Shown: piece by piece, positions 477 through 62,778 of the stretch
How the letters are laid out: the number at the start of each line of letters is the position of its first letter
Numbering within the stretch: position 1 is the stretch's first letter
The notes under the pieces: model-generated
The model's database searches: none
Seen by the model: only the letters and a program-made list of their open reading frames with translations
What the model was told of the DNA's origin: nothing
Source: Actinomycetota bacterium
GTDB taxonomy: Bacteria; Actinomycetota; Thermoleophilia; Solirubrobacterales; 70-9
Length of the DNA: 64,000 bases
Assembly: GCA_018268415.1 (NCBI GenBank)
Contig: JAFDWO010000121.1
Coordinates: forward strand, 1-64,000
Reading direction: 5' to 3'
Position numbers and translations under genes: made by a program

Positions 477-528
477 CGGCCGTCTCGGCCACGGCCACAG
501 CCTGCCCGGGCCGTGGACGAGACGGCCG
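477..528. repeat. 52-bp type I hairpin, loop CACAGCCTGCCcGG
   Basis: Arms of 19 bp (477-495 and 510-528, one mismatch) flank a 14-nt loop at 496-509. The loop differs at one base from the CACAGCCTGCCAGG loop found at the apex of four other hairpins in loci B and C. The outer arms begin CGGCCGTCTC. Confidence 0.9.
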
Positions 529-712
529 CATCCCTTCCGCCATGAGCGACAGCTCGAGGGGGCCGCATCCCTTTCGCCCTGGGGCGTCAGCTCGAGGGGG
601 CCGGGGGCCCTTCCTGCGGGGCGTCAGCTCGAGGGGGCCGGGGACCCTTTCCCACGGGCGGCAGCTTGAGGGGAGCCCATCCCTTCCCCGCGGGCGCCAG
701 CCTGCGGCGCCG
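529..712. repeat. Five tandem copies of a 37-bp repeat
   Basis: Units start at about 529, 566, 604, 641 and 677, each 36-38 bp. The core is CATCCCTTTC...GGGCGTCAGCTCGAGGGGGCCG, with the last two units more diverged. The same unit occurs inverted at 43493-43566 and in direct orientation at 62779-62852. It always abuts the 52/54-bp hairpin. There are no unique spacers, so it is not a CRISPR array. Confidence 0.85.
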
Positions 713-727
713 CGGATCTTCCGGCCC

Positions 728-1042
728 TCAGCCCAGGCCGAACTCGGCGCGGCGATCGGCCGGGACGAGGTCCCGGAACTCCTCGTGCTTCCCGATGTAG
801 CCGCTGACGAAGGGGCAGAACGGGACCACCCGCAGCCCCTCCTCACGGGCATCGCGCAGGGCCCGGTCGATCATCCGGCCCGCCAGGCCCTCGCCTTTGT
901 GGCCCGGGAAAGTCTCGGTGTGGGTGAAGGAGATGGTCCCCGGCTGCTTGACGTAGTCGGCGATCGCCGCGGCCTCCCCGTCGATCCGGACCTCGTAGCG
1001 CGACTGCTCCTTGTTGTCGATGACCTCGGGTGACGTCGGCAT
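728..1042 (-). CDS. GNAT-family N-acetyltransferase-like protein
   Basis: The 104-residue product matches the short, single-domain GCN5-related family (COG2388, YjdJ-like). It shows an N-terminal beta-hairpin (RYEVRIDGEAAAIADY), an acceptor-region strand ISFTHTETFPGHKGEGLAGRM containing the acetyl-CoA pyrophosphate-binding H-x-G-x-G-x-G/A-like turn (about residues 47-55), and the family ending CPFVSGYIGKHEEFRDLV. Proteins of this type bind acetyl-CoA but their acceptors are mostly unknown. The gene starts 16 bp after the deacetylase stop and is likely last in an operon with hbd, MOSC and deacetylase genes; locus A follows its stop directly. Confidence 0.85.
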   Translation of the reverse strand: MPTSPEVIDNKEQSRYEVRIDGEAAAIADYVKQPGTISFTHTETFPGHKGEGLAGRMIDRALRDAREEGLRVVPFCPFVSGYIGKHEEFRDLVPADRRAEFGLG

Positions 1043-1058
1043 GCGGCAACGGTATCTG

Positions 1059-1871
1059 TCACGGACGGTGGAGCATCCGCCCGCCGAGCAGCTCGGTCAC
1101 GGTGACGAGGCGCAGGCCGCGCCGCTGGAGGCCTTCGACGATGCCGCCGATCGCCTCCACCGTCTGCGGGTGGTGACCGCCGTCGTGCAGGAGGACGATC
1201 GAGCCGGCCTTGGTGCGCCGCACCACGCGTTCCCGGATCGCGGCGGCGCCCGGGTGCTTGTCGTCTTCGGAGTCGAGCGTCCAGAAGACCAGCTGGAGCC
1301 CGTTGGTCCGCGCCGCCGCCTTCTCGTTGCGATCGAGTTCGCCGTAGGGCGGGCGGAACAGGCACGGCGTGAAGCCGGTGGCGGCGCGGATCGCCGCCTG
1401 GGTCGACGCGAGCTCGCCCTCGCCGGGGTCGACCGGGTGGTCGAAGGAGTGGTTGCCGATCTCGTCGCCGAGAGCGAGGATCTGGCGCATCAGCGCCTCG
1501 CGGCCGCGCACGTGCCGCCCCTCCTCGAAGAAGGTGGCGTGGGCGCCGAGGCGATCGAGCGTCGCCAGGATCGCCGGGGTCTGGGTGCGGCTCGGGCCGT
1601 CGTCGAAGGTCAGCGCGACCTCGTCGGCCGCCCGCGCCGGGGGCGGCCCTTCCCTGACGATCGCGCCCGGCCGCGAAGTGCACCCGTACGGTTCCTCTCC
1701 CGCTCCGACCACGGTCCCGCCGTCGGTCCTGCCCCACGCCGTCGCCGCCCCGAAGAGCCCGAGCGCGACGCCCAGCAGCGCCGCCCAGCGCAACGTCACC
1801 CTCCTCGCTGAAGCAGCGTGGTGGCATGACAACCAAAAAGGCTTCAGCCGACGCCGGCGCGCCCGGGTCAC
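1059..1871 (-). CDS. Secreted polysaccharide deacetylase (NodB domain)
   Basis: The 270-residue protein has a basic N terminus, a hydrophobic export or anchor segment (about 29-46) and a carbohydrate esterase family 4 domain. Motif 1 is TFDDGPS (88-94) with the catalytic and metal aspartates, motif 2 is HSFDHP (141-146) with metal histidines, motif 3 is RPPYGE (173-178), and motif 5 is LLHDGG (227-232). It would remove acetyl groups from cell-wall or capsule glycans at the cell surface. The GTG start overlaps the MOSC gene stop as GTGA, which argues for translational coupling and for this start over the internal GTG before the hydrophobic segment. Confidence 0.9.
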   Translation of the reverse strand: MTRARRRRLKPFWLSCHHAASARRVTLRWAALLGVALGLFGAATAWGRTDGGTVVGAGEEPYGCTSRPGAIVREGPPPARAADEVALTFDDGPSRTQTPAILATLDRLGAHATFFEEGRHVRGREALMRQILALGDEIGNHSFDHPVDPGEGELASTQAAIRAATGFTPCLFRPPYGELDRNEKAAARTNGLQLVFWTLDSEDDKHPGAAAIRERVVRRTKAGSIVLLHDGGHHPQTVEAIGGIVEGLQRRGLRLVTVTELLGGRMLHRP

Positions 1872-2536
1872 GAGCTCATCTGCGCCATCTGCTCGCGCAG
1901 TGAGTCGAGCAGCTGCGGCGCCGCCTGCGCCTGTGGGATCAGGCCGTGGTCGACCAGCATCGCGTCGGAGACCAGCCGCACGTCGACGCCGTGGTCGGGC
2001 CGCCCGGCGAGGTCGACCACTACCGCGTCGCCCGCCCCGAGCTCACCCTCCTCGACGATCTTCAGGTAGGCACCGGGGCGCGAGGCGCGGGCGAAGCGAC
2101 GCACGAAGCCCGGGTCCTGCATCTTCAGCGCCAGCTTGAAGCACGGCAGGCGCGGCTGGACGACCTCGAGCAGCGTCGTCCCGATCCGCCAGCGCTCACC
2201 GAGGACGGCGCCGGAGACGTCGACGCCTTCGGTGGTCAGGTTCTCGCCCCAGGCACCGGCCCCGAGCGAACGCCCGAGCTCCCCTTCCCAGAGCCGCGTC
2301 TCCTCGATCGCGTACGCGTAGACCGCCTTGTTGGGGCCGCCGTGCACGGTCAGGTCGGCCTGGCGATCCCCGTCGAGGTTGACCCCGCGCACCCTCACCC
2401 GACCCTCGACCGGGTCCTTCCAGATCGCCGTCTCGACGATCCGCGACCCCGTGTCGATCGGCCTCGGGGTGCCGACGTTGACGCTGACGAGGCGGCCGCG
2501 GGATGGGTCGTCGCGGGGGCCATCCATGGACGACAT
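1868..2536 (-). CDS. MOSC domain protein
   Basis: The 222-residue product carries a MOSC (molybdenum cofactor sulfurase C-terminal) domain of the YiiM type. Visible family features are the LTVHGGPNKAVYAY stretch (about 62-75), WGENLTTEGVDV, and QPRLPCFKL with the conserved cysteine near residue 133 that is thought to carry sulfur or bind a metal-sulfur ligand. YiiM-like proteins act in molybdenum-dependent N-hydroxylate reduction or sulfur transfer; the partner here is unknown. A second in-frame ATG nine bases downstream is an alternative start. The gene follows hbd by 35 bp. Confidence 0.88.
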   Translation of the reverse strand: MSSMDGPRDDPSRGRLVSVNVGTPRPIDTGSRIVETAIWKDPVEGRVRVRGVNLDGDRQADLTVHGGPNKAVYAYAIEETRLWEGELGRSLGAGAWGENLTTEGVDVSGAVLGERWRIGTTLLEVVQPRLPCFKLALKMQDPGFVRRFARASRPGAYLKIVEEGELGAGDAVVVDLAGRPDHGVDVRLVSDAMLVDHGLIPQAQAAPQLLDSLREQMAQMSS

Positions 2537-2571
2537 CTTCGCAACCCGCGGCGACCCCGCGGCGACCCCGG

Positions 2572-3447
2572 TTACGCGCGGGACGGCTCCCGTACCTCGC
2601 TGTACTCGTAGAAGCCACGCCCGGACTTGCGGCCGATGCGGCCCGAGGCGACCATCCGCTTCAGCAGCGGCGGCGGCGCGTACTCGGTCTGCTTGAACTC
2701 CTCGTAGAGGGAGTCGCCGATCGCGTAGAGGACGTCGAGGCCGATGAAGTCCGCAAGCGTGAGCGGCCCCATCGGGTGACCACAGCCCTGCTTCATCCCC
2801 TCGTCGATGTCCGCGGCGGTGGCGAAGCCTTCTTCGTACATCCGCACCGCCGCCATCAGGTAGGGCACGAGCAGCATGTTGACGATGAAGCCCGAGCGGT
2901 CCTTGGTGACGATCGCGCGCTTGCCGATGCGCTCGGCGAGCTCCTTGGCCGCCTCCAGGGTCTCCTCGGAGGTGTCGAGGGCGACGACGACCTCGACCAG
3001 GCGCATCACCGGCACCGGGCTGAAGAAGTGGAGGCCGAGGACGCGCTCGGGGCGCGGCAGGCCGGCGGCCAGCTGGGCGATCGGGATCGAGGAGGTGTTG
3101 GAGGCGATCAGCGTGTCGGAGGAGACGATGCCGGCCACCTGGGCGAGGATGTTCGCCTTCAGCTCGGCGTTCTCGGGCACCGCCTCGATCACCAGGTCGG
3201 CGTCGGCGATGGCTCCGAGCTCGGCCGTGTAGTCGATCCGGCCATGGATCTCCGCCGCCTCGTCCTCGCTGACCTTGCCGCGCTCGACCGCGTGGCCGAG
3301 GGACGTGCTGATCCGCTTGTGGGCCGCGCCGATCGCGGTCCCGTCGATGTCACGGACGACCACCGGCAGGCCGGCGCGCGCCACCGACTCGGCGATCCCC
3401 GACCCCATCAGCCCGCCGCCGAGGACGGCGACCTTCTCGATGCTCAT
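2572..3447 (-). CDS. hbd: 3-hydroxybutyryl-CoA dehydrogenase
   Basis: The 291-residue protein is a single-function 3-hydroxyacyl-CoA dehydrogenase. The NAD-binding Rossmann turn GGGLMGSG is at 10-17, the substrate/NAD segment SNTSSIPI is at about 116-123, and the catalytic histidine lies in HFFSPVPVMRLVE (H140). It converts 3-hydroxybutyryl-CoA and NAD to acetoacetyl-CoA in fatty-acid or butyrate metabolism. GAGGAG lies 7-12 bases upstream of the ATG. The upstream region holds a 14-bp word (3475-3488) that also occurs in front of icmF, suggesting shared control. The length is normal for the family (about 285 aa). Confidence 0.93.
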   Translation of the reverse strand: MSIEKVAVLGGGLMGSGIAESVARAGLPVVVRDIDGTAIGAAHKRISTSLGHAVERGKVSEDEAAEIHGRIDYTAELGAIADADLVIEAVPENAELKANILAQVAGIVSSDTLIASNTSSIPIAQLAAGLPRPERVLGLHFFSPVPVMRLVEVVVALDTSEETLEAAKELAERIGKRAIVTKDRSGFIVNMLLVPYLMAAVRMYEEGFATAADIDEGMKQGCGHPMGPLTLADFIGLDVLYAIGDSLYEEFKQTEYAPPPLLKRMVASGRIGRKSGRGFYEYSEVREPSRA

Positions 3448-3474
3448 CTGTTCTCCTCAGATAGGTGGCTTGCA

Positions 3475-3488
3475 GATAGTAGGAATAC
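3475..3488 (-). promoter_or_regulatory. 14-bp motif shared by hbd and icmF upstream regions
   Basis: Read on the minus strand this is GTATTCCTACTATC. The identical 14 bases occur at 8414-8427 immediately before icmF. TACTAT could serve as a -10 hexamer for hbd, giving a leader of about 20 nt containing the GAGGAG ribosome site. It could also be an operator. Function is inferred only from the recurrence. Confidence 0.5.
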
Positions 3489-3543
3489 AGCCTTGTTTAT
3501 CGCACGGCAAACCCGAACCCCCCGGTTCGGTTATGGCCCGGGA

Positions 3544-4206
3544 TCAGGCGGCCGGGAGCAGGTCGTGGAAGACGAAGCCGTCGCGCTCGACGGTCTCGCC
3601 GTGTGCCACCGCGACCGGCGCGGAGAAGATCGGGCCAGCGGTAACGAAGGTATGGAACTCGCCGTTCTCGCCGCACGGGTCGACACCGGCGGGGAGGTCG
3701 CGGAGGAGGTCGGCGTCGAAGGCGCGGCCGGCGAAGGAGGGGTCGAGCCGGCGCGGGTCGACGCAGACGAGCGTCGCCGCGAAGCCGGCCTCGACGAAAC
3801 GCGCGGCGAGCGCGGCGGTGTCACGTCCCCAGAGCGGGAAGGTCGCCCGGCGGCCGACCGCCGCGAGCCGCTCCTCGCGGTAGGCGCGGATGTCCTCCAG
3901 GAAGAGGTCGGCGAAGGCGAACTCCTCCACCGCGGCCAACGGCGGTGAGTCCAGGGCGGCGGCCATCCGTTCCTCGTAGACCTCGTTGACGCAGGCAGCG
4001 GGGATGAGGGCCTCGACGAGCGGCACCCCGACCGCCGCGGCCTGGGCCTCGAGCAGCGAGCGGCGGACGGCGTGCATGCTGACCCGGTCGTAGTCCTCGG
4101 TGAGGGTGGTCAGCAGGGAGGCCGGCTCGACACCCAGCTCCTCGCGCATCACCCACAGCGCCAGCGCCGAGTCCTTGCCACCGCTCCAGGAGAGCGCGAC
4201 GCTCAT
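3544..4206 (-). CDS. Dph6-like ATP pyrophosphatase (PP-loop amidotransferase family)
   Basis: The 220-residue protein has the PP-loop motif SGGKDS at residues 8-13, followed by ALALWVM and an EDYDRVSMHAV segment typical of the Dph6/MJ0570 family. In eukaryotes Dph6 amidates diphthine on EF2; bacteria lack diphthamide, so the bacterial substrate is unknown. Its ATG overlaps the stop of the upstream BtuF-like gene as ATGA and the operon begins with icmF, so a role connected to cobalamin or acyl-CoA metabolism is possible but only inferred from context. Confidence 0.82.
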   Translation of the reverse strand: MSVALSWSGGKDSALALWVMREELGVEPASLLTTLTEDYDRVSMHAVRRSLLEAQAAAVGVPLVEALIPAACVNEVYEERMAAALDSPPLAAVEEFAFADLFLEDIRAYREERLAAVGRRATFPLWGRDTAALAARFVEAGFAATLVCVDPRRLDPSFAGRAFDADLLRDLPAGVDPCGENGEFHTFVTAGPIFSAPVAVAHGETVERDGFVFHDLLPAA

Positions 4207-4958
4207 CGCGTGTACTCCCGCAGGTAATCGATCCCGGCGATCGCCCGCGAGCCATACCAGGAGGTCATCTCGCCGTCGATCAGGCCGACCTTCGCTCCCG
4301 GGACGAGCGCCGCGACCTCCTCCACATGGTGCTCCTTGAAGTGGAAGGGCTCCGAGGAGAGCAGCACGCGATCCACGTTGAGAAAATCGGCGAGATCGAC
4401 CTCCGGATAGCGAACCCGTAGACCTTGGTCGCCTTGTGGGCTACCAACCTCCACGGGTTGCGCGGCGTCCCAGTTGAAGAGCGCCAAGGTCTGCGCGATG
4501 TAGGTGTCGGAGGCGACCGTCATCCACGGATCTCTCCAGATCAGGTACAGCACCAGCTGGTCGGGGCGGTCGTCGACCCGCGAGACCGCGGCTTCGAACC
4601 TCGCGCACAGCGCCTCCGCCTGCGCCTCGCGATCGAACTCCCTCCCCATCTGCCGGTAGAGATCGAGGTTGTCGCGCGGGGCGAGTGGGTGGGTCACCAC
4701 CACGTTCGGGACGAACTCCGCCAGGGCTTCCGCGTCCTCTTTCCTGTTCTCGTCGACGTTGACGACCACGTGGGTCGGTTCGAGCTCGCGGATCTTGTCG
4801 AACTTCAGATCCTTGGTCCCTCCCACCTTCGGGATCGTCTTCACCGTCTCCCAGGGATGGATGCAGAAGCCGGTCCTCCCCACGACCTGCTCGGACAGGT
4901 CGAGGTCGCAAAGAAGCTCGGTGATGCTCGGGACCAGGGAAACGATCCGCACAGCCAC
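4203..4958 (-). CDS. BtuF-like substrate-binding-fold protein without signal peptide
   Basis: The 251-residue product matches helical-backbone (type III) ABC substrate-binding proteins for cobalamin or iron chelates: an opening VRIVSLVPSITELLCDL strand, GRTGFCIHPWE, a KVGGTKDLKFDKIREL block, THVVVNVDENRKEDAEAL, and a final SWYGSRAIAGIDYL. It starts directly with the first beta strand, so there is no signal peptide or lipobox, and no ABC permease genes are nearby. It begins 10 bp after the stop of the B12-dependent mutase icmF. A cytosolic corrinoid-binding or corrinoid-handling role is a reasonable inference, not shown by the sequence. Confidence 0.8.
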   Translation of the reverse strand: MAVRIVSLVPSITELLCDLDLSEQVVGRTGFCIHPWETVKTIPKVGGTKDLKFDKIRELEPTHVVVNVDENRKEDAEALAEFVPNVVVTHPLAPRDNLDLYRQMGREFDREAQAEALCARFEAAVSRVDDRPDQLVLYLIWRDPWMTVASDTYIAQTLALFNWDAAQPVEVGSPQGDQGLRVRYPEVDLADFLNVDRVLLSSEPFHFKEHHVEEVAALVPGAKVGLIDGEMTSWYGSRAIAGIDYLREYTR

Positions 4959-4968
4959 GCGACGTTAC

Positions 4969-8412: not shown

Positions 8413-8413
8413 G

Positions 8414-8427
8414 GATAGTAGGAATAC
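8414..8427 (-). promoter_or_regulatory. Second copy of the hbd/icmF 14-bp motif
   Basis: GTATTCCTACTATC (minus strand) ends one base before the ATG of icmF. At this spacing TACTAT cannot be the -10 box for an ATG-8412 start, so an operator role or a start further downstream must be considered. An upstream AT-rich TTTATG (about 8431-8436) could belong to the real promoter. Confidence 0.45.
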
Positions 8428-8496
8428 CACATAAATCGCGAGGGAGCCACTGATCGACCGCCTGCATCTGCCCCCCCAGCGGGGTAATCGCAGACG

Positions 8497-8535
8497 GTCT
8501 GCACCTCGGACCGTTCTGCGACCCGAGGTGCAGAC
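8497..8535 (-). terminator. Hairpin after the MarR gene
   Basis: A perfect 13-bp stem (8497-8509 with 8523-8535, CCGAGGTGCAGAC on the leading side) and a 13-nt loop begin four bases after the MarR stop codon. There is no clear U-tract. It probably separates MarR transcription from icmF. Confidence 0.6.
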
Positions 8536-8538
8536 GCC

Positions 8539-9048: not shown

Positions 9049-9086
9049 CCGCCCAAGTCTCTCAGCCCCCGGGGCGGCGGACGAAG

Positions 9087-9159
9087 TGGCCGGGGCCGGA
9101 CTTGAACCGGCGACACCTCGATTTTCAGTCGAGTGCTCTACCAACTGAGCTACCCAGCC
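9087..9159 (-). tRNA. tRNA-Phe (anticodon GAA)
   Basis: On the minus strand the 73-nt sequence folds as a cloverleaf. The acceptor GGCTGGG pairs with CCCGGCC (one G-U), followed by discriminator A. The D arm is GCTCAGTTGGTAGAGC and the anticodon stem CTCGA/TCGAG encloses loop CTGAAAA with anticodon GAA. The T arm is GCCGG-TTCAAGT-CCGGC. CCA is not encoded. It lies 38 bp upstream of the MarR start. Confidence 0.95.
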
Positions 9160-42477: not shown

Positions 42478-42552
42478 GAGCGGTCGGGTGGACCCTCCCG
42501 GGACGCTCGCCTCGCTCGCTTGAGTGTCCCGGGAAGGTCCACCCCACCGCTC
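42478..42552. repeat. 27-bp inverted repeat between divergent genes
   Basis: Arms 42478-42504 and 42526-42552 pair with two mismatches around a 21-nt loop rich in GCTCGC. It occupies the promoter region shared by the carboxylase (-) and PHP gene (+), so it may be a regulatory site rather than a terminator. Confidence 0.75.
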
Positions 42553-42623: not shown

Positions 42624-43436
42624 ATGCCACTTATCGAGCTGCAGAGTCACTCCACCCACTCCGACGGACAGCTGGCCGCGCGGGACGTTGTCGCCGAAGC
42701 GGCGAAGGCAGGGGTGACGACCCTGGCGCTATCCGACCACGACTCCGTGGCGGGCGTGCCGGAGGCGGAAGTGGCGGGGCGGGAGCACGGGGTCGAGATC
42801 GTGCCCGCGGTGGAGATGTCCTGTGTCCATGAGTACGCCGAAGACCTGCACATCTGCGGCTACTGGGTCGACCTGGCCAAGATCGAGCCGGCCTGTGAGC
42901 GCGCCCAGCAGGAACGGCGCAACCGCGCCGGCGAGATCGTCGAGAACCTGCGCGGCTTCGGCTTCGAGCTGACCCTCGACGACGCGATCCGCGAAGCGGG
43001 CGGCGCCGACTCGATCGGCCGCCCCCACATCGCCAAGGCCGCCGGCGCGACCGGGGACCTCGGCCCCTTCTTCGAGGAGTACCTGGTGCCCGGCGCCAAA
43101 GCCTTCGTCCCCCGCCGCTGGCCGAGTGCCGATGAGGCGATCGCCCTCATCCACGACGCCGGCGGCCTCGCCGTCATCGCCCACCCCTACTGGGACATCT
43201 CCGAGCCCACCGAGGTCGACGACCTGATCCGCTCACTGAAGGCCGACGGCGTGGAGACCTTCTATCCCACCCACACCGAAGAGCAAACGAAGCACCTCCT
43301 CGACCTCTGCGCCAAGCTCGGCCTCGTCCCCACCGCCTCCTCCGACTACCACGGCCCGACGCACAAGACCTTCGCCAGGTTCGGCGCCTACGAGACCTAC
43401 GGCCTCGGCGAGCCGGCGGTCCCGGCAAGGCCCTAG
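42624..43436 (+). CDS. PHP-domain phosphoesterase
   Basis: The 270-residue protein begins LIELQSHSTHSDGQL (H-x-H metal motif at 9-11), then ALSDHDSVAGVPEA, EIVPAVEMSC, RPHIAKA, VIAHPYW and SSDYHGPTHK, the complete trinuclear metal set of the PHP family. Single-domain PHP enzymes of this kind act on nucleotides (3',5'-bisphosphate, RNase AM-like) or phospho-sugars. The gene ends at locus B. Confidence 0.9.
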   Translation: MPLIELQSHSTHSDGQLAARDVVAEAAKAGVTTLALSDHDSVAGVPEAEVAGREHGVEIVPAVEMSCVHEYAEDLHICGYWVDLAKIEPACERAQQERRNRAGEIVENLRGFGFELTLDDAIREAGGADSIGRPHIAKAAGATGDLGPFFEEYLVPGAKAFVPRRWPSADEAIALIHDAGGLAVIAHPYWDISEPTEVDDLIRSLKADGVETFYPTHTEEQTKHLLDLCAKLGLVPTASSDYHGPTHKTFARFGAYETYGLGEPAVPARP

Positions 43437-43492
43437 GACGGGGCTTAGGAAGGGCCCGGCCCCCTCAAGCTGCCGCCCGCGGGGAAAGGCAC

Positions 43493-43566
43493 GCGGCCGC
43501 ATGAAGCTGTCGCCCGAGAGGAAAGGGATGCGGCCGCATGAAGCTGTCGCCCGAGAGGAAAGGGTT
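43493..43566. repeat. Two exact-length 37-bp tandem repeats (plus a diverged third)
   Basis: Units at 43493 and 43530 (GCGGCCGCATGAAGCTGTCG then CCCGAGAGGAAAGGG and two variable bases) differ only in the second-last base. A diverged copy precedes them (about 43463-43492). They are the reverse complement of the locus A and C repeats. Confidence 0.9.
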
Positions 43567-43567
43567 G

Positions 43568-43619
43568 CGGCCGTCTCGTCCACGGCCCTGGCAGGCTGTG
43601 GCCGTGGCCGAGACGGCCG
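43568..43619. repeat. 52-bp type I hairpin (inverted)
   Basis: Arms 43568-43586 and 43601-43619 (19 bp, one mismatch) with loop 43587-43600, which is CACAGCCTGCCAGG on the minus strand. Same arm family as locus A. Confidence 0.93.
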
Positions 43620-43901
43620 AGGGTGCGGGGAGCGTGCGGGGGAAGCACGGAAGGCCCCCGCGGGAGGATGCGGGCGAGTGACGCGGATCCCTCGCGTGAT
43701 GGACACGGCGCTCCCACGGATCCGGGACGCGCGTCCCACGGACCCCCCGATCCCGGCGTCCGGGCGCCGGGGGTCCCACGGATCCCCCCGATCCCGGCCC
43801 CCCGGGGCCGGGAGGTGTGACGGGACCGTCACGGAGGAGGGACCTCGTCACGGAGACGTAGGGAACTCCACGCCTCCTCCCGTGTTGTCCAACGCTCACG
43901 G

Positions 43902-43953
43902 ACGCGCTGCGTGGGTTTTCCACCGTATAGGGGGGCCAAAACACGCAGCGTGT
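43902..43953. repeat. Locus B slot hairpin
   Basis: CGCTGCGTG and TTTT pair with AAAA and CACGCAGCG around a loop containing CCACCGTATAGGGGGG, with a 2-nt bulge. The flanking bases match those around the palindrome at 62364-62415, so a different hairpin sits in the same slot. Confidence 0.8.
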
Positions 43954-44223
43954 TCCCGGGCCCCCTTCTCCGGCCCGGAAAGGGACCGAAGTTTCCCGGG
44001 AATGTGACGTTCCCGGCGTCTTCGTCACCGATCGGGGCGAGGTGTGGCCTCTCCCGCACGGACCCGTCACGGAAGTCCGACCTCCCTCGGTTCCTGCGTC
44101 TCCCCCTGTCCCTGTCCCGCCTTTTTCACGACCCCCTCCCGTCCCTGCCTCTCCCCTCATCCCTGTGTCGTCTTTTTCACGACCCCCTCCCGTCCCTGTG
44201 TCGTCTTCCCCACGACCCCCTCC

Positions 44224-44283
44224 CGTCCCGGGCGCCTCATGGCGCTCACAGCCTGCCAGGAGCGCCATGAGGCGCCCGGGACG
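44224..44283. repeat. 60-bp type I hairpin
   Basis: Perfect 23-bp arms (44224-44246 and 44261-44283, ...GGGCGCCTCATGGCGCT) with loop CACAGCCTGCCAGG at 44247-44260. The identical element stands inverted at 62047-62106. Confidence 0.95.
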
Positions 44284-44284
44284 C

Positions 44285-44680
44285 AGCTCGGACGGGTGCG
44301 GGGGTCGGGGTCGGGGGCATCTCGGACGGGTGTGGGGGCCGAGGTCGGGGGCCACGCGCCCCGCGCGGCAGCTCGGGACGGGCGCGGGGGTCGGGGTCGC
44401 GCGGCACCTCGGACGGCCGGGGCGGCCGGGGTAGCTCCGCCACGCACGCCGCGCCGCAAACTCGGACGGGTGCACGGGCCGCGGCCCCGCCCGTCCCTTC
44501 TCGACGGCCCGCCCCTTCCGCTGTTCCTTATGGGGCTCATAGCCCCATAAGGAACAGCGGAGCGATCCCGGGGATGCGCGGCGGCCGGGGCCGCATCTCG
44601 GACGGGCGGGGTGGCGCGGTCGCGCCGCAACTCGGAAGGCCACCAGGGCCTGGCCCGCACAGCACCTCGGACAGACGCCC
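44285..44680. repeat. Degenerate CTCGGACGG interspersed repeats
   Basis: About eight copies of (C/A)NCTCGGACGG, several followed by GTGCGGGGGTCGGGGTC, at irregular 30-125 bp spacing. Locus C has five inverted copies between 61873 and 62046. Confidence 0.7.
44518..44560. repeat. Type II hairpin, 20-bp stem, CAT loop
   Basis: CCGCTGTTCCTTATGGGGCT, loop CAT, then the exact complement. The stem is unrelated to the other type II hairpins. Confidence 0.93.
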
Positions 44681-44735
44681 CGGCCGCGGAGCGCGCCCGT
44701 CCCCTCGCGGCGCGCCCGCAGCGCGGCTTCACCGC

Positions 44736-46607
44736 TTACCCCAGCAGAGACAGAACCTGCCGGACAGCCTCCTCGAGGTCCGGCGAGGTCACCAGGTCCG
44801 GCCGCTCGGGCGCCTCGTAGGGCGAGCCGACACCGGTCAGGTCCTTGATCTCGCCCGCGCGAGCCTTGGCGTAGAGGCCCTTCGGGTCACGGCGTTCGCA
44901 CTCCTCCAGCGGGGTGTCGACGAAGACCTCGTAGAAGGGGATCCCGGCCTCCTCGTGGAGGGCGCGAACGCGGTCGCGCTCGTCGCGATAGGGGCTGACC
45001 AGGGAGGCGATCGCCACGGTGCCTGATTCGGCGAGGATCTTCGCCACCTCGCCGACGCGGCGCACGTTCTCGTTGCGGTCCTCCGCGGAGAAGCCGAGGT
45101 TGGCGTTCAGGCCGTGGCGCAGGTTGTCGCCGTCGAGCATGAAGGCGGCGCGGCCCGAGGACACGAGGGTGTGCTCGATCGCCGTCGCGATCGTCGACTT
45201 GCCGGAGCCCGAGAGCCCCGTCATCCAGATCGTCGCGCCGCCCGTCTCGAGGGCCGCCCAGCGCTCCTCGCGCGAGAGCTTGGAGGGGTGGAAGGTGATG
45301 TTCTCGGCCACGATCGAGGCCGCGTCGGTGGCGACGCCCGGGTCTCCCCCGGCGCTGATGATCATCCCCGCCGCGACCGTCAGGTCGGTCGCCGGGTCGA
45401 CCAGGATGAAGCTGCCGGTGGTGCGGTTGATCCGGTACTCGTCGAAGAAGAGCGGCGAGGTGGTGTGGATCGCGACGCGGCCGATGTCGTTGACCTCGAG
45501 CGTCTCCGCGGCGAGATCGCGGTGCAGGGTGTCGACGTTCAGCTGATATCGGAGCTCCTCGACCTCGGCGGCGACCCACCGGGTCGTGTGCTTCAGCTGG
45601 TACGGCGCCCCGGTGCGCAGCTGCGAGGTCTCGTCGAACCAACAGATCATCGCCTCGAAGCGGCGGCTCGCGGTCGGCTGGTTGGTCGGGCGGCAGATCA
45701 TGTCGCCGCGGGACACGTCGACCTCGTCCTCCAGGCGCAGCGTCACCGCCATCGGCGGGAAGGCCTGCGCGACCTCGCCTTCAGGCGTGTCGATCGCGGC
45801 GATCTTCGAGGCTTTCCGCGACGGCATCACCATCACCTCGTCGCCCTGCTTGAAGATCCCGCCGACCACCGACCCGGCGAAGCCGCGGTAATCGCGGTAC
45901 TCCGCCGACTGCGGGCGGATCACGTACTGGACCGGGAAGCGGTTGTCGACCAGGTTGCGATCGGAGGCGATGTGGACGTCCTCGAGGTGGCCGAGCAGCG
46001 GCTGCCCGTGGAACCAGGGCATGTTCGGCGAGGGCTCGACCACGTTGTCACCGACCAGCGCCGAGATCGGCACGAAACCGAGGTCGGTGATGTCGAGCTT
46101 CGCGGCGAAGGCGGTGAACTCCTCGCGGATCTCGTCGTAGATCCGCTGGTCGTAATCGACCAGGTCCATTTTGTTGACGCAGAGAACCAGGTGCGGCACC
46201 CCGAGCAGGGACGACAGCAGCGCGTGGCGGCGGGTCTGTTCGAGCACGCCTTTGCGCGCGTCGATCAGGAGCAGGGCCAGGTTGGCGGTCGAGGCGCCGG
46301 TGACCATGTTGCGCGTGTACTGGATGTGGCCGGGCGTGTCGGCGATCACGAACTTGCGCTTCGGCGTCGCGAAGTACCGGTAGGCGACGTCGATCGTGAT
46401 CCCCTGCTCGCGCTCGGCGCGCAGGCCGTCGGTCAGCAGCGCCAGGTCGGTCTGTTCGTCGCCACGTTTCTCCGAGGTCCGCTCGATCGACTCGAGCTGG
46501 TCTTCGAAGATCGATTTGGTGTCGTGCAGGAGCCGCCCGATCAGGGTCGACTTGCCATCGTCCACCGACCCCGCGGTCGCGATCCGGAGGATCTCCGTGG
46601 CCGGCAT
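44736..46607 (-). CDS. cysNC: Bifunctional sulfate adenylyltransferase subunit 1 / APS kinase
   Basis: The 623-residue protein has an EF-Tu-like GTPase part (about 1-430): P-loop GSVDDGKST (13-21), DTPGH, NKMDLVDY, then beta-barrel domains. A C-terminal APS kinase part has P-loop GLSGSGKST (about 462-470), DGDNLRHGLNANLGFS and GLYAKARAGEIKDLTG. With CysD it makes APS from sulfate and ATP and then PAPS. The ribosome site GGAGG lies in a 34-bp inverted repeat whose partner holds the cysD stop, so translation may depend on that structure. Confidence 0.96.
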   Translation of the reverse strand: MPATEILRIATAGSVDDGKSTLIGRLLHDTKSIFEDQLESIERTSEKRGDEQTDLALLTDGLRAEREQGITIDVAYRYFATPKRKFVIADTPGHIQYTRNMVTGASTANLALLLIDARKGVLEQTRRHALLSSLLGVPHLVLCVNKMDLVDYDQRIYDEIREEFTAFAAKLDITDLGFVPISALVGDNVVEPSPNMPWFHGQPLLGHLEDVHIASDRNLVDNRFPVQYVIRPQSAEYRDYRGFAGSVVGGIFKQGDEVMVMPSRKASKIAAIDTPEGEVAQAFPPMAVTLRLEDEVDVSRGDMICRPTNQPTASRRFEAMICWFDETSQLRTGAPYQLKHTTRWVAAEVEELRYQLNVDTLHRDLAAETLEVNDIGRVAIHTTSPLFFDEYRINRTTGSFILVDPATDLTVAAGMIISAGGDPGVATDAASIVAENITFHPSKLSREERWAALETGGATIWMTGLSGSGKSTIATAIEHTLVSSGRAAFMLDGDNLRHGLNANLGFSAEDRNENVRRVGEVAKILAESGTVAIASLVSPYRDERDRVRALHEEAGIPFYEVFVDTPLEECERRDPKGLYAKARAGEIKDLTGVGSPYEAPERPDLVTSPDLEEAVRQVLSLLG

Positions 46608-51219: not shown

Positions 51220-51228
51220 GAGCCCACT

Positions 51229-53422: not shown

Positions 53423-54544
<1,122 letters not shown>

Positions 54545-54551
54545 CTGGTGC

Positions 54552-56108: not shown

Positions 56109-56117
56109 TCCGGCTCC

Positions 56118-57500: not shown

Positions 57501-57597
57501 GCCGCTCTCCTTCCAAACGCTTGCGACGTTCTGGACAACGCTAGAGGCCCATAGGCACGTACGCAAGGGGCTTGCCGGTGAAGCGGGGTCTCTAGGA

Positions 57598-57614
57598 TTG
57601 TACAGCTGGTACAA
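57598..57614. promoter_or_regulatory. Palindrome TTGTACAGCTGGTACAA in the pot/aminotransferase divergent region
   Basis: TTGTAC-AGCTG-GTACAA, perfect 6-bp arms, about 90 bp from either start codon. Candidate regulator site. Confidence 0.6.
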
Positions 57615-57622
57615 GTCACCGC

Positions 57623-57637
57623 TGTCCTTTTAGGACA
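57623..57637. promoter_or_regulatory. Palindrome TGTCCTTTTAGGACA in the same divergent region
   Basis: TGTCCT-TTT-AGGACA, perfect 6-bp arms, beginning eight bases after the previous dyad. The two AT-containing dyads stand out in the GC-rich 203-bp gap. They are plausible PucR operators because the regulator is encoded in the divergent operon. Confidence 0.65.
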
Positions 57638-57703
57638 TTCGCCACTTGCGACCCGCGCCGGGGGGGCATACCTTCGGTTCACGCAGAGGGAGACGGAGGA
57701 GAG

Positions 57704-58888: not shown

Positions 58889-60033
58889 GTGGGAGTCGAC
58901 CCCGGAGGGCGGTGCGGAAGGTCGCCCTCGCGACGGCCGCGCTGGCGGCGGCGGTCGGCATCGCGGCATGCGGCAGCGGCATCGAAGGCCCGGTGGAAGC
59001 GACCGGCGCGAAAGTCGAACTGGAAAACAAGGCGAGCGGCACCCTCGTGATCTCCAACTGGCCGCTCTACATCGACAAAAAGACGGTGCCGAACTTCGAA
59101 AAGGCGACCGGCATAAACGTCGAATACCACGAAGACATCAACTCCAACGAAGAATTCTTCAACAAGATGCAGCCGCTGTTGTCGGCAGGTGAATCGGGCG
59201 GCCGCAGCATCTTCGTCCTGGCCGACTACATGGTCGCGAAGATGATCAAGCTCGGGTACCTGCAGGAACTCGACAAGAGCGCGATGCCGGAAGTCGAAGC
59301 GAACATGTCGGAAAGCCTGCGCCACCCGCCTTTCGATCCCGAACGCAACTACTCGGTGCCTTGGCAGAGCGGCATGACCGGGCTGATCGTCAACAAGGAA
59401 CTGGCGCCGGAAGTGAAGTCGATCTGTGATCTGTTCAACCCCAAGTACAAGGGCAAGGTCGACTTCCTGAACGAAGTCCGGGAAACCGTGCCGCTGGTGA
59501 TGAAGTGCGAAGGGGTCGACACCGAAAAGGCCACCGAAGCCGACTGGCTGAAAGCGATCGAAAAAATCAAGACCGCCGCCACCGACGGTCAGATCAGCCG
59601 CTTCACCGGCAACGATTACGCGGCCGACCTGACCAACGGCAACGCGGTGGCGGTGATGGGCTGGTCAGGTGACGCGGTCCAGCTACAGGCCGACAACCCG
59701 AACCTCGAATGGCGGATGCCCACCGAAGGCTGCATGCTCTGGTCCGAAGACATGATCATCCCGGTCGGGGCGCCGAACCCGACCGCGGCCGAGGCCTTCA
59801 TGAACTACGTCTACAAGCCCGAGGTCCAGGCCAACATCACCGAATACGTGAACTACGTGACGCCGGTCGAAGGCGTCCAGGAAGTCCTGGTGAAGCGGGA
59901 ACCCGAACTCGCCAAGAACCACCTGATCTTCCCGAGCGCATCGTTCACCAAGAACTGCTCCCCCACCCCGACCCTCGAAGGCAAGGAGGAAAAAAACGTG
60001 ATCCGGGCCTTCGACGAAGTGCTGAACGGTTAG
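58885..60033 (+). CDS. potD: Polyamine-binding lipoprotein
   Basis: The 382-residue binding protein has a lipoprotein signal with lipobox Cys29 (VGIAAC). A periplasmic-type fold follows: TLVISNWPLYIDKKTVPNFE, VEYHEDINSNEEFFNKM, NYSVPWQSGMTGLIVNKEL, AVAVMGWSGDAVQ and GCMLWSEDMIIPVGAPNP, matching PotD/PotF. Aromatic and acidic residues in these segments bind the amine groups. The ATG overlaps the potA stop (ATGA). Glutamate codons are almost all GAA, with only three GAG seen, unlike potA. Confidence 0.95.
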   Translation: MSGSRPRRAVRKVALATAALAAAVGIAACGSGIEGPVEATGAKVELENKASGTLVISNWPLYIDKKTVPNFEKATGINVEYHEDINSNEEFFNKMQPLLSAGESGGRSIFVLADYMVAKMIKLGYLQELDKSAMPEVEANMSESLRHPPFDPERNYSVPWQSGMTGLIVNKELAPEVKSICDLFNPKYKGKVDFLNEVRETVPLVMKCEGVDTEKATEADWLKAIEKIKTAATDGQISRFTGNDYAADLTNGNAVAVMGWSGDAVQLQADNPNLEWRMPTEGCMLWSEDMIIPVGAPNPTAAEAFMNYVYKPEVQANITEYVNYVTPVEGVQEVLVKREPELAKNHLIFPSASFTKNCSPTPTLEGKEEKNVIRAFDEVLNG

Positions 60034-60045
60034 GGCGGAACGGTC

Positions 60046-60912
60046 ATGGTCGCCGCCCTCCGTCGTCGCACTCCCGCCTATCTGCTGCTCGCGCCGGGGG
60101 CGCTGTGGCTGATCATCTTCTTCGTCATCCCGCTGTACTTCATGGCGAAGCTCTCGCTGGACACGGAAATCCCCGGCACTCTCCATTACCGCTTCACCTG
60201 GGAATGGTCGAACTACAAGGAAGCGCTCGAACTGTATGACACGCAGTTCGGCCGTTCCTTCATCTACGCCGGGATCGCGACGCTTCTCTGCCTGATCATC
60301 GCCTACCCCCTCGCCTATGTGATCGCCTTCAAGGCGGGCAGGTGGCGCAACCTGATGCTGTTCGCCGTGGTCGCACCGTTCTTCACCACCTACCTGGTAC
60401 GGACCCTGGCCTGGAAGACGATCCTTTCCAACGAAAGCCCGATCACCGAAATCCTCCACGCGATCGGCCTCGCTCCCAGCGGCCACATCCTCTATACCGG
60501 CTTCGCGGTGATCGCCGGGATCACCTACAACTTCCTCCCCTTCATGGTGCTACCACTGTACGCCAGCCTCGAGCGGATCGACGTCAGGGTGCTCGAGGCC
60601 TCCAAAGACCTCTACGCGAGCGCCACCAGCACCTTCTGGAAAGTGACCTTGCCGCTGTCGCTGCCCGGGGTCGTCGCGGGCACGCTCCTCACCTTCATCC
60701 CCGCCGTCGGCGATTACGTCAACGCCGAATTCCTCGGCGGCGCCAACAACCGGATGATCGGCAACGTGATCCAGTCGCTCTACCTGACCCAGTCCGATTA
60801 CTCGGCGGCGGCGGCGCTGTCGTTCGTACTGATGGCGGTGATCATGATCGTGGTGTTCATCTACATCAGGTTCGCCGGGTCGGAGGCGCTGATGGGACAG
60901 GAGGCCGTATGA
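60046..60912 (+). CDS. potB: Polyamine ABC transporter permease (PotB type)
   Basis: The 288-residue membrane protein has about six helices, beginning AYLLLAPGALWLIIFFVIPL. The permease EAA loop is VLEASKDLYASATSTFWKVTLPLSLPG. It pairs with PotC as the translocation pore and is 12 bp downstream of potD. Confidence 0.95.
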   Translation: MVAALRRRTPAYLLLAPGALWLIIFFVIPLYFMAKLSLDTEIPGTLHYRFTWEWSNYKEALELYDTQFGRSFIYAGIATLLCLIIAYPLAYVIAFKAGRWRNLMLFAVVAPFFTTYLVRTLAWKTILSNESPITEILHAIGLAPSGHILYTGFAVIAGITYNFLPFMVLPLYASLERIDVRVLEASKDLYASATSTFWKVTLPLSLPGVVAGTLLTFIPAVGDYVNAEFLGGANNRMIGNVIQSLYLTQSDYSAAAALSFVLMAVIMIVVFIYIRFAGSEALMGQEAV

Positions 60913-61820
60913 GCGCGACCCCAGCCACCACTCCGGGCGAGGGCTCGCTGAGCGCCGAAACCGGCGCCGCCCGCGCCTGGCGCTGGGTCCGCGAACACGC
61001 GGTCAACGTCGTCGCGGTGCTCGTGGTGATCTACCTGTTGGTCCCGATCGTGGTGATCTTCGTCTTCTCCTTCAACAACCCGGCCGGGCGCTACAACTTC
61101 ACCTGGGTCGGCTTCACCCTCAAGCACTGGTCGCATCCGTTCAGCGACACCGAACTCACCAAGGCGATGCTGACCAGCATCAAACTGGCGCTGCTGGCGA
61201 CGGTCATCTCGACCATCGTCGGCACGATGATGGCGATCGCCCTCGTCCGTCATAAGTTCGTCGGGCGACGGATCACGAACTTCCTGATCGTTATCCCGAT
61301 GGCGACCCCAGAGGTGGTGATGGGGGCCTCGCTGCTTTCCTTCTTCCTCGTCCTCGGCACTCCGGCGCTCGGCTTCGAGACGCTGCTGATCGCCCACGTC
61401 ATGTTCTGCATCAGCTTCGTCGTGGTGGTGGTGCGCTCACGGTTGATCGGCTTCGATCGCAGCCTCGAGGAGGCGGCGAAGGACCTCGGCGCGGGGCCGT
61501 TCACCACCTTCCGCCTGGTCACCCTCCCACTCATCCTGCCCGGCATCTTCGGCGCGGCGATGCTCGCCTTCGCACTCTCGATCGACGACTTCGTCATCTC
61601 CAACTTCAACTCGGGGACGACGGTCACCTTCCCGCTGTACATCTTCGGCGCCGCCCAGCGCGGGATCCCGGTCGAAGTGTACGTAGTGGCGATGATCCTC
61701 TTCTTCGCCACCGTGGCCGCGATGGGCTTCGCCACCTGGCAGCAACGCCGGGCCGAAAAGATGACCGCGATCCGGCCCGAGCAGGAGGCGGCGGACATCG
61801 CGCTGCCGGGGGTCGCTTAG
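60909..61820 (+). CDS. potC: Polyamine ABC transporter permease (PotC type)
   Basis: The 303-residue permease starts at ATG 60909, overlapping the potB stop (ATGA). It has an N-terminal cytosolic tail, about six helices (VVAVLVVIYLLVPIVVIFVF first), and the EAA loop LEEAAKDLGAGPFTTFRLVTLPLILPG. Upstream in-frame sequence is out-of-phase potB and is not part of it. Locus C follows its stop. Confidence 0.95.
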   Translation: MSATPATTPGEGSLSAETGAARAWRWVREHAVNVVAVLVVIYLLVPIVVIFVFSFNNPAGRYNFTWVGFTLKHWSHPFSDTELTKAMLTSIKLALLATVISTIVGTMMAIALVRHKFVGRRITNFLIVIPMATPEVVMGASLLSFFLVLGTPALGFETLLIAHVMFCISFVVVVVRSRLIGFDRSLEEAAKDLGAGPFTTFRLVTLPLILPGIFGAAMLAFALSIDDFVISNFNSGTTVTFPLYIFGAAQRGIPVEVYVVAMILFFATVAAMGFATWQQRRAEKMTAIRPEQEAADIALPGVA

Positions 61821-61872
61821 GACTGGGGTTTGTTAAGGGCCGGCCGAGGTGTGGTGCGGCCGGGGCCGGGGT

Positions 61873-62046
61873 GGCCGTCCGAGGTGCCGCGGGCGCGGCC
61901 CCGGCCCCCACACCCGTCCGAGTTGCCGCGCGGTCTCGGCCGCCCCACCCGTCCGAGATGCGTTGTCGCGGCGCGTAGCGCCGCGGCCCCGACCCCCACA
62001 CCCGTCCGAGTTGCCGCGGCCCCGGCCGCCCCGCCCGTCCGAGCTG
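61873..62046. repeat. Five degenerate CCGTCCGAG repeats
   Basis: Copies of CCGTCCGAGNTGC near 61875, 61915, 61949, 62005 and 62036, most preceded by CCCCACAC or CCGCCC and followed by CGCGG. They are the reverse complement of the locus B repeats. Confidence 0.75.
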
Positions 62047-62106
62047 CGTCCCGGGCGCCTCATGGCGCTCCTGGCAGGCTGTGAGCGCCATGAGGCGCCC
62101 GGGACG
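62047..62106. repeat. 60-bp type I hairpin (inverted copy)
   Basis: Perfect 23-bp arms (62047-62069, 62084-62106), loop 62070-62083 reading CACAGCCTGCCAGG on the minus strand. Arms identical to 44224-44283; only the loop shows it is inverted. Confidence 0.95.
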
Positions 62107-62363
62107 GGAGGGGGTCGTGGGGAAGAGAGGTCACAGGGACGGTAAGGGGTTCGTGAAAGAGGCGGCACGGGGACGGGAGGAAGGTCGGACTCCCGTGATC
62201 CTCCGGTCCGGGAGAAGGCCCGGGGACCGGAGGAGGTCGGACTCCCGTCACGGTCACGTATGGAAGAGGGATCCAAAGCGCCCGATCGGTGACGAGGATG
62301 CCGGGAACGTCACCCTTTCCTGAACCTTCGGTCCGTTCCCGGGCCCGAAAGGAGGGCCCGGGA

Positions 62364-62415
62364 ACGCGTTCCGTACCTTGACCCTGCCATGGCAGGGTCA
62401 AGGTACGGAACGCGT
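62364..62415. repeat. 52-bp perfect palindrome with CATG apex (type II)
   Basis: Same palindrome as 1-48 with one compensated base pair, extended by AC/GT at the ends. It overlaps a 12-bp palindrome GGAACGCGTTCC (62361-62372). It occupies the slot that holds a different hairpin in locus B. Confidence 0.95.
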
Positions 62416-62537
62416 CCGTGAGCGTTGGACAACACGGGAGGAGGCGTGGGGTCCCACGCTCCTCCGTGACGGGGTCGGACTTCCGTGATCGTCCGGTCCG
62501 GGAGAAGGCCCCCGGGGACCGGGGTCCATGGGGAGGC

Positions 62538-62576
62538 GTGGTGGGTTACCGTCGCCATGCGACGGTAACCCACCAC
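62538..62576. repeat. Type II hairpin, 18-bp stem, CAT loop
   Basis: GTGGTGGGTTACCGTCGC, loop CAT, exact complement. The stem sequence is unrelated to the other type II hairpins. Confidence 0.93.
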
Positions 62577-62724
62577 AGGGACTCCTCGGGCGGTGGGAGG
62601 ACGGGAGGAGGTGCGGAGTTCCCACCGTCTCCGTCCCGTCTCCGTCACGAGGTCCGACCTCGGTGACGGACCCATGGCGCTTCCGTGATCCTCCCGCCAG
62701 GGTCCCTCCACACTTCCCACGGAC

Positions 62725-62778
62725 CCGGCCGTCCCGGCCACGGCCACAGCCTGCCAGGGCCGTGGACGGGACGGCCGG
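62725..62778. repeat. 54-bp type I hairpin
   Basis: Arms of 20 bp (62725-62744, 62759-62778, one mismatch) with loop CACAGCCTGCCAGG (62745-62758). Compared with loci A and B, CTC/GAG in the arms is replaced by CCC/GGG, a compensated change. Confidence 0.93.

What the first reader, a model, noticed from the sequence alone, without database searches (positions are those of the whole stretch)
477..62778. A 14-nt sequence CACAGCCTGCCAGG occurs five times, always as the loop of a long hairpin, on two unrelated stems
Positions are 496-509 (one base different), 43587-43600 (minus), 44247-44260, 62070-62083 (minus) and 62745-62758. Three lie on 19-20-bp arms of the CGGCCGTCTC family and two on perfect 23-bp arms GGGCGCCTCATGGCGCT. 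A conserved loop with exchangeable but fully paired stems is the opposite of ordinary terminators, where the stem is conserved and the loop drifts. It suggests a loop-recognised RNA or cruciform element, possibly mobile, that I cannot match to any known family (REP, BIME, ERIC, RPE).
Basis: seen in the sequence. Interest (0 to 1): 0.9.

Follow-up and report, generated by a model that had tools for sequence, protein, structure and literature searches.

The report
Twin-hairpin repeats with one fixed loop
A small group of actinobacteria known from environmental genomes carries many copies of a non-coding DNA element that ends in two long hairpins; the hairpins share nearly the same 14-letter loop while their stems differ and stay paired, which points to an unidentified factor that reads the loop.

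Summary
In detail: the five sites are exact and the 14-mer is no local curiosity. The own genome has 361 copies with at most 1 mismatch against 3 for a reversed control. In 0.43 Mb of own contigs, 29 of 29 exact copies sit in long stems, against 0 of 236 in viral contigs. The hairpins are not independent: 91 of 92 close neighbours face inward, and 90 of those 91 pairs have one A-type and one B-type stem. Each pair bounds a non-coding mosaic element. Stems are largely species-specific and covary; across species A and B align. Elements occur in 6 of 232 genomes of the order, all in one genus, favour gene 3' ends, and are absent from orthologous sites of sister species. I read them as non-autonomous, REPIN/MITE-like mobile DNA whose end hairpins are recognised through the loop by an unknown enzyme; the RAYT/IS200 family was found in 0 of 12 genus genomes. 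Enzyme, target duplication and RNA-versus-DNA action are unproven; a host role as transcription barrier is the main rival.

The parts
472..533 (-). B-type hairpin, loop 496-509 (CCGGGCAGGCTGTG on the - strand); right end of an element cut off by the contig start
   Evidence: 70.2 bits
1..471 (.). interior (mosaic spacer) of the first element, with perfect palindrome 1-48
   Evidence: spacer homology, 45 HSPs; palindrome
524..701 (.). outer 37-bp tandem array next to the B hairpin (4.8 copies, 74% matches)
43563..43624 (+). B-type hairpin, loop 43587-43600 (CCTGGCAGGCTGTG on +); left end of element 2
   Evidence: 70.8 bits
43625..44223 (.). mosaic spacer of element 2; my script called no gene there
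44224..44283 (-). A-type hairpin, loop 44247-44260; right end of element 2
   Evidence: 81.1 bits
43467..43573 (.). outer 37-bp tandem array on the B side (2.9 copies, 91% matches)
44283..44352 (.). outer 34-bp tandem array on the A side (2.1 copies, 88% matches)
62047..62106 (+). A-type hairpin, loop 62070-62083; left end of element 3
   Evidence: 81.1 bits
62107..62720 (.). mosaic spacer of element 3, with palindromes 62364-62415 and 62538-62576
62721..62782 (-). B-type hairpin, loop 62745-62758; right end of element 3
   Evidence: 73.2 bits
61893..62047 (.). outer 33-35-bp tandem arrays on the A side (CCCGTCCGAG... units)
   Evidence: two rows, 61893-61961 and 61980-62047
62773..62848 (.). 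outer 37-bp tandem array on the B side (2.1 copies, 84% matches)
42624..43436 (+). flanking gene: PHP-domain protein, 3' end towards element 2
44736..46607 (-). flanking gene: EF-Tu-type GTPase fused to APS kinase (CysNC-like; name recalled), 3' end towards element 2
60046..60912 (+). ABC transporter permease upstream of element 3; a second permease-like frame ending at 61820 follows (judged from its translation, not searched)
62941..63957 (-). flanking gene: FAD-dependent oxidoreductase, 3' end towards element 3

Best explanation
The loop marks both ends of one kind of non-coding composite element. Shown: in 90 of 91 complete pairs the element has an A-type hairpin at one end and a B-type hairpin at the other, loops facing inward, 0.23-0.85 kb apart, with a mosaic spacer and end-specific outer motifs; it is dispersed in half the species of one genus, mostly at gene 3' ends, and is missing from some orthologous sites of sister species. 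Inferred: it is non-autonomous mobile DNA of REPIN/MITE type. A trans-acting enzyme not yet identified binds the hairpins, when single-stranded or extruded as cruciforms, through the shared 12-nt loop; the stem only has to pair, so it can drift by compensatory change. Two inverted copies of the loop bring the ends into one complex. Insertion or survival is favoured between converging genes, where no promoter is broken. A side effect on transcription through the hairpins is likely but untested.
For: Pairing: 91 of 92 hairpin neighbours within 1.3 kb face inward, 90 of 91 such pairs are A+B. Dispersal: 361 loop copies, five sister genomes with 69-321; covariance model in 6 of 232 genomes of the order. 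Presence/absence: of 5 two-sided syntenic comparisons, 3 show a unit against a short gap, 1 a different hairpin, 1 both occupied with unlike end types. PHP/CysNC-like site, 11 loci: intact unit in G000, unit without its B hairpin in G008, remnant without intact hairpins in G007, no unit in the other eight, of which G011, G001 and G004 are nearly gapless. At 12 gene ends occupied in two species the end type agrees in 7 (one misfiled hairpin corrected). Whole units are alignable within a genome. Loop nearly fixed, stems covarying; the G008 stems never, and the G000 and G006 A stems once each, occur without the loop (74, 56 and 16 hairpins with it). Hairpin identity 0.97 against 0.77 for spacer in G000.
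Against: No enzyme: Y1 transposase in 0 of 12 genomes; RT in 2 of 12 (one carrier, one not), tyrosine recombinases in 12 of 12 and rve in 10 of 12 do not track the carriers. No autonomous copy: in the fetched stretches no inward pair exceeds 0.9 kb. No target duplication could be read. No near-identical recent copies among 91 units: best linker identity 94%. In the closest quarter of pairs linkers have diverged about 1.5 (G007) to 6.6 (G000) times as much as hairpins, which dead insertions would not do. Seven of 12 shared gene ends agree in end type, which is also what inherited copies would show. Loop binding by a protein is inference only.
Confidence: 0.55

Rival explanations
1. Host function: a two-way transcription barrier or mRNA 3'-end protector between converging genes. 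Each gene's transcript meets a hairpin with the loop CCUGGCAGGCUGUG followed by G-rich RNA; a host factor reads the loop.
For: 3'-end preference: 206 of 272 hairpin ends face a gene 3' end; occupied regions 41 convergent, 31 co-directional, 4 divergent against 104, 531, 146 unoccupied (five genomes summed). Read inwards, the 60 nt inside the hairpin have more G than C in 158 of 160 cases while coding strands average -0.014 skew. RNA folds of four window hairpins at -43 to -58 kcal/mol. Hairpins better conserved than linkers; 31 of 36 hairpin slots kept in 18 interior spacer regions found without using the loop.
Against: No T-tract: TTTT in the 15 nt after the hairpin in 1 of 280, mean T 13%. 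104 of 145 convergent regions do without it, and two non-carriers have abutting stop codons at the PHP site. Independent terminators would not come as A+B pairs. Some sites differ between sister species.
Confidence: 0.25
2. Mutational upkeep: palindromes are perfected and homogenised by template switching and by hairpin cleavage followed by gene conversion among copies; neither loop nor stem is read by anything.
For: Two other long-palindrome families (CTGTTCCTTAT, GGGCCGAAAA) abound in the same six carriers and are absent or few in the others, so the clade may simply breed perfect palindromes. One hairpin is lost between its feet (G008, by eye). Stem sets are mostly homogeneous within species. 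Two hairpins have a B stem on an A-like flank (G008 L112, G006 L124), as conversion would give.
Against: Such processes conserve pairing, not a loop: the loop is the part that stays alike between species and between A and B. Identity falls within 20-40 nt of the stem foot, leaving little room for long conversion tracts. In the other families the stem base is kept and the apex varies.
Confidence: 0.11
3. Kissing ends: the left and right loops are reverse complements on one strand and pair with each other, closing the element into a ring in RNA or ssDNA.
For: Inward orientation makes the loops complementary over up to 14 nt. Two diverged elements carry the same rare letters in both loops: G000 C46:48528/49289 (two letters) and G007 C23:454/694 (one letter).
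Against: Position 3 is often T in one loop and G in the other, breaking a pair. Rare loop letters are shared within a unit no more than chance allows: 1 observed, 1.18 expected, P 0.74 in a first set that included some inner palindromes; 2 observed of 101 units, 0.83 expected, P 0.19 in a cleaned set. The second test is weak, not a disproof; I raised this rival slightly for it.
Confidence: 0.06
4. A REP/REPIN family driven by a RAYT transposase.
For: Two inverted palindromic ends with a less conserved spacer, over 100 copies, gene 3' ends, species-specific sets: as described for REPs, REPINs and BIMEs (abstracts and passages of PMC3116915, PMC3733652, PMC2817692).
Against: PF01797 in 0 of 12 genus genomes while the control rang in 5 of 14; GTAG at the foot in 1 of 280 hairpins; stems about 19-25 bp instead of 5-13 (PMC3733652).
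Confidence: 0.03

Closest known systems
REPIN (REP doublet forming hairpin) and BIME, with RAYT/TnpA-REP
   Same: Two inverted palindromic ends, more conserved than the spacer; compensatory changes; over 100 copies; intergenic; species-specific (abstracts and passages of PMC3116915 and PMC2817692).
   Different: Each end is itself a hairpin of about 19-25 bp with a nearly fixed 12-nt loop and free stem; ends 0.23-0.85 kb apart (71 bp between the 16-mers of the GI REPIN, PMC3116915); A and B ends differ; no GTAG tag (1 of 280); no Y1 transposase found. For TnpA-REP of E. coli loop letters did not matter, in two other systems one or three loop positions did (PMC8266576, passages).
MITEs (miniature inverted-repeat transposable elements)
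   Same: Short, non-coding, inverted ends, dispersed, presence/absence between species.
   Different: No target duplication shown; no parent transposon found; the terminal repeats are self-palindromic and within this genome share mainly the loop.
IS200/IS605 subterminal hairpins
   Same: Hairpins near both ends that a single-strand transposase could read.
   Different: There both hairpins are read on one strand (recalled knowledge); here they are mutually inverted, and no TnpA was found.
Rolling-circle origins of circoviruses, geminiviruses and pT181-type plasmids (recalled, not tested)
   Same: Conserved loop on a stem whose sequence may vary: the loop is the nick site of an HUH enzyme.
   Different: No replication gene between the hairpins; two inverted copies per element; chromosomal repeats.
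CGTC-tagged REPs
   Same: The A stem begins CGTC.
   Different: There CGTC is unpaired, stems are 8-9 bp and loops 4-5 nt (PMC3733652, passages).

Membership tests
REP/REPIN-RAYT | RAYT (Y1_Tnp) gene in the genome | tested here: not met
   PF01797 in 0 of 12 genus genomes, control genomes 5 of 14; assemblies 78-100% complete
REP/REPIN-RAYT | GTAG (or CGTC) unpaired tag at the palindrome foot | tested here: not met
   GTAG/CTAC at the foot in 1 of 280 hairpins; CGTC at the A foot is paired
REP/REPIN-RAYT | inverted doublet as unit | tested here: met
   91 of 92 neighbouring hairpins inward
REP/REPIN-RAYT | short stem (5-13 bp) | tested here: not met
   stems mostly about 19-25 bp
MITE | terminal inverted repeats | tested here: inconclusive
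   inverted loops and related stems qualify loosely; no clear A/B homology beyond the hairpins (best case G011 inner, 18 of 500 shuffles as high); outer GCTGGCGCC motif on both sides only in G008
MITE | target-site duplication | tested here: inconclusive
   empty sites found but flanks too diverged to read a duplication
MITE | related autonomous transposon | tested here: inconclusive
   no inward pair over 0.9 kb in the fetched stretches, but only part of each genome was read
Intrinsic terminator | hairpin followed by a U-tract | tested here: not met
   TTTT within 15 nt in 1 of 280 hairpins, mean T 13%
Intrinsic terminator | RNA 3' ends map to the hairpin | not testable with these tools
   no transcript data
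Known structured RNA (Rfam) | match above gathering score | tested here: not met
   only a tRNA at 9087-9159 in the window; matches to element 2 are all below gathering scores, mostly microRNA hairpins
Phage or plasmid element | similar DNA in phage, plasmid or viral collections | tested here: not met
   no match for 43430-44740; A-type and B-type patterns 0 in viral contigs

The most novel reading that the evidence does not exclude
A mobile-DNA system in which the recognition code is the single-stranded loop at the tip of a long cruciform and the stem is a free spacer, run by an enzyme outside the Y1/RAYT family; the same clade-specific machinery may also drive the other perfect-palindrome families of these genomes.
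Probability: 0.3. Interest if true: 0.85.

Novelty: new variant of a known kind. Interest (0 to 1): 0.62.

Why it matters
The best-studied bacterial palindromic repeats are tied to RAYT enzymes or to terminator-like roles in which the stem or its foot carries most of the code. A large family whose loop is the most constant part, with strong stem covariation and no RAYT found, would need a different reader, and offers a natural set of covarying hairpins with which to find it. It also bears on assembly: 34 of the 100 exact copies listed lie in the first 1,000 bases of a contig.

Tried and rejected
REP/RAYT, IS200: not supported in the held assemblies. Reverse transcriptase, tyrosine recombinase and rve as carrier-specific drivers: no tracking. 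Kissing loops: no significant covariation, though the cleaned test is weak. Regular spacing as chromosome-domain marks: CV 0.62 over 18 spacings, not unusual (P 0.06 against all intergenic sites, 0.31 against convergent sites). A and B ends as longer inverted repeats: no clear homology inside or outside the hairpins. Rfam, phage, plasmid and viral searches: nothing. Literature: seven word searches listed nothing that I recognised as this element; papers seen: PMC3733652 (abstract, passages), PMC3116915 and PMC8266576 (passages), PMC2817692 (abstract and section list); all others only as search listings.

Limits of my own counts: gene calls and A/B labels come from scripts of mine; one hairpin (L218) was misfiled and corrected by hand, and one of the five differing pairs there (G006 L124) has a B stem on an A-like flank. 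The covariation alignment holds 23 hairpins picked for variety out of 129 distinct ones (49 A, 80 B), which favours seeing variation; the unpicked test is 17.2 of 18 inner pairs over 202 hairpins. Most stretches were fetched around loop hits. In one search the stem-without-loop test is informative only for the longer arms: with 8-base arms it gave many chance hits without the loop (114, 40 and 42 strand-wise for G000 B, G006 B and G011 A), and G011 B gave 23 hairpins with and 2 sites without the loop.
Full report
What was checked. The five sites are real and exact at the given places. Each loop is the tip of a hairpin with arms of 20-25 bp; two are A-type (CGTCCCGGGCGCCTCATGGCGCT), three B-type (CGGCCGTCTCGTCCACGGC and close forms). 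The window is part of contig C24 of a 4.74 Mb, 160-contig assembly, which holds 361 copies of the 14-mer with at most one mismatch against 3 for the reversed pattern. In 0.43 Mb of own contigs, 29 of 29 exact copies have a stem, 5 of 7 with one mismatch, 3 of 7 with two, 0 of 66 with three and 1 of 545 with four; as a control, 0 of 236 exact copies of the two loop forms in viral contigs have one. The reverse also holds where the arms searched were long enough: the G008 stems occur 74 times with the loop and never without, the G000 A stem 56 times with and once without, the G006 A stem 16 and 1, the G011 B stem 23 and 2 (shorter arms gave chance hits and are not informative).

The unit. Hairpins come in pairs. 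Over all fetched stretches of six genomes, 91 of 92 hairpin neighbours closer than 1.3 kb face inward, so that the left loop reads CCTGGCAGGCTGTG (or a close form) and the right one its reverse complement; 90 of these 91 pairs hold one A and one B stem (30 in G000, 19 G011, 18 G008, 13 G006, 7 G007, 3 G003), and the odd one, in G008, has a B stem on an A-like flank. Independent hairpins would give about half mixed pairs. The ends are 231-851 bp apart in the units. Whole units are alignable within a genome (75-89% over 0.67-1.2 kb in the 30 best pairs); interiors carry further palindromes that differ between units and species. Outside the hairpins lie end-specific short motifs (CCGTCCGAG on the A side and GCTG(G/T)CGCC on the B side in several species, others in G007, G008 and G011) and, beside the window's hairpins, 33-37-bp tandem arrays of those ends.

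Loop fixed, stem free. In 23 hairpins picked for variety, 92.5% of cells are paired, 19 of 26 pairs show changes on both sides, 104 cells in all; 0 of 500 shuffles reach these values (the count of pair types is not above shuffles), and sliding the partner by 1-3 columns drops pairing to 37-47%. Without picking, 202 hairpins have 17.2 of the 18 inner pairs on average; arms combined across species or types mostly fall to 3-15, except G000 with G007 B stems, which are nearly alike. The alignment also shows that A and B stems are related: in G008 they share the inner arm, and those of G011 are similar. The loop changes little: T or G at position 3, rare changes elsewhere. Hairpins are far better kept than spacers within a genome (0.97 against 0.77 in G000, 0.97/0.75 in G008, 0.91/0.59 in G011, 0.93/0.73 in G006), and identity falls within 20-40 nt of the stem foot. 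This is not mainly an effect of searching by the loop: of 18 interior spacer regions found by spacer homology (single-hit regions and contig edges left out), 14 have both hairpins, 3 one, 1 none, that is 31 of 36 slots.

Where it occurs. A covariance model of the hairpin matches 6 of 232 genomes of the order, all in one genus, where 6 of 12 species carry it. In a tree of the PHP protein, which lacks G003, the five carriers are one side of a branch with support 100/99. Carriers have genomes of 3.8-4.7 Mb, non-carriers of the genus 2.4-3.4 Mb. Nothing similar turned up in phage, plasmid, viral or Rfam collections.

Presence and absence. Of five two-sided syntenic comparisons, three show a unit in one species and a short gap in the other (G008 against G011, G011 against G008, G006 against G007); in one the other species has an unrelated hairpin; in one both are occupied but the same gene end has an A end in one species and a B end in the other. 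The window's element 2 lies between PHP and a CysNC-like gene. At the same place G001 and G004 have abutting stop codons and G011 a gap of a few bases; G006 has other palindromes but no unit, G005 and G010 longer gaps without a unit, G002 and G009 other neighbours; G008 has an element whose B hairpin is cut out between the feet, and G007 an element without intact hairpins (G003 had no PHP match). At 12 gene ends occupied in two species the end type is the same in 7 and different in 5 (after correcting one label), so several shared sites look like separate arrivals while others may be inherited. Elements favour gene 3' ends: 206 of 272 hairpin ends face one, and occupied intergenic regions are 41 convergent, 31 co-directional, 4 divergent against 104, 531 and 146 unoccupied.

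Mechanism. The most economical reading is a non-autonomous mobile element of REPIN/MITE type whose end hairpins are read through the loop by a trans-acting enzyme. The known driver of such repeats, the Y1 transposase RAYT, was found in 0 of 12 genus genomes while the same search rang in 5 of 14 control genomes. Reverse transcriptase, tyrosine recombinase and rve families do not follow the carriers. Loop-to-loop pairing gained no significant support: rare loop letters shared within units were 1 against 1.18 expected (P 0.74) and, in a cleaned set of 101 units, 2 against 0.83 (P 0.19). Against a purely mobile reading, the closest copies have only 94% linker identity and their hairpins have changed less; this fits either repeated rounds of movement that demand good ends, or a present function. 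A hint of transcription-linked function is that the strand just inside each hairpin, read inwards, has more G than C in 158 of 160 cases while coding strands average -0.014; but a T-tract is lacking (TTTT after 1 of 280 hairpins). I therefore keep a host barrier role as the main rival at 0.25.

Novelty. The architecture is that of a REPIN or BIME, but the constant part has moved from the foot of a short stem to the loop of a long one, and the expected enzyme was not found. I file it as a new variant of a known kind. It fails the membership tests for REP/RAYT; the target-duplication and autonomous-parent tests for MITEs are inconclusive.

Noticed in passing
window 44516-44562; also C24 70880-70922, 77176-77230, 87562-87606 (outside the window): A second palindrome family, CTGTTCCTTAT...ATAAGGAACAG, nearly always 37 nt in the listed sites, with a conserved stem base and a varying, mostly paired apex: 83 sites in the own genome, 5-73 in the five other carriers, 10 in non-carrier G005 and 0 in the five other non-carriers.
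   Followed up: partly
G000 C24 71216-71264, 75629-75681, 85341-85389 (outside the window): A third family, GGGCCGAAAA...TTTTCGGCCC, 29-91 sites per carrier genome and 0-1 in non-carriers, a median of 13 nt after the nearest stop codon in 8 measured cases; it may be a clade-specific 3'-end hairpin.
   Followed up: partly
window 1-48 and 62364-62415: Perfect palindrome with centre CCCTGCCATGGCAGGG; its letters recur in about 20 of 30 own-genome units, and its centre holds the loop core TGGCAGG on both strands.
   Followed up: no
window 42478-42552: A hairpin with 27-bp stem and 21-nt loop between a biotin-carboxylase-like gene (by its translation) and the PHP gene, of no family I recognised.
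   Followed up: no
window 43467-43573, 524-701, 61893-62047, 62773-62848: 33-37-bp tandem arrays of the element's own outer ends, including the first bases of the stem; they look like footprints of repeated arrivals or hairpin losses at one place.
   Followed up: partly
L112 (G008) 2518-3203; L124 (G006) 4126: Two hairpins with a B-type stem on an A-like outer flank, as if a stem had been exchanged while the loop stayed; L112 is the only unit of 91 with two B stems.
   Followed up: partly
L220 (G006), PHP/CysNC-like gap: At the orthologous gap G006 has three other palindromes bounded by GGCTGACGCC and its inverse, like an outer end motif without the A/B hairpins (by eye).
   Followed up: no
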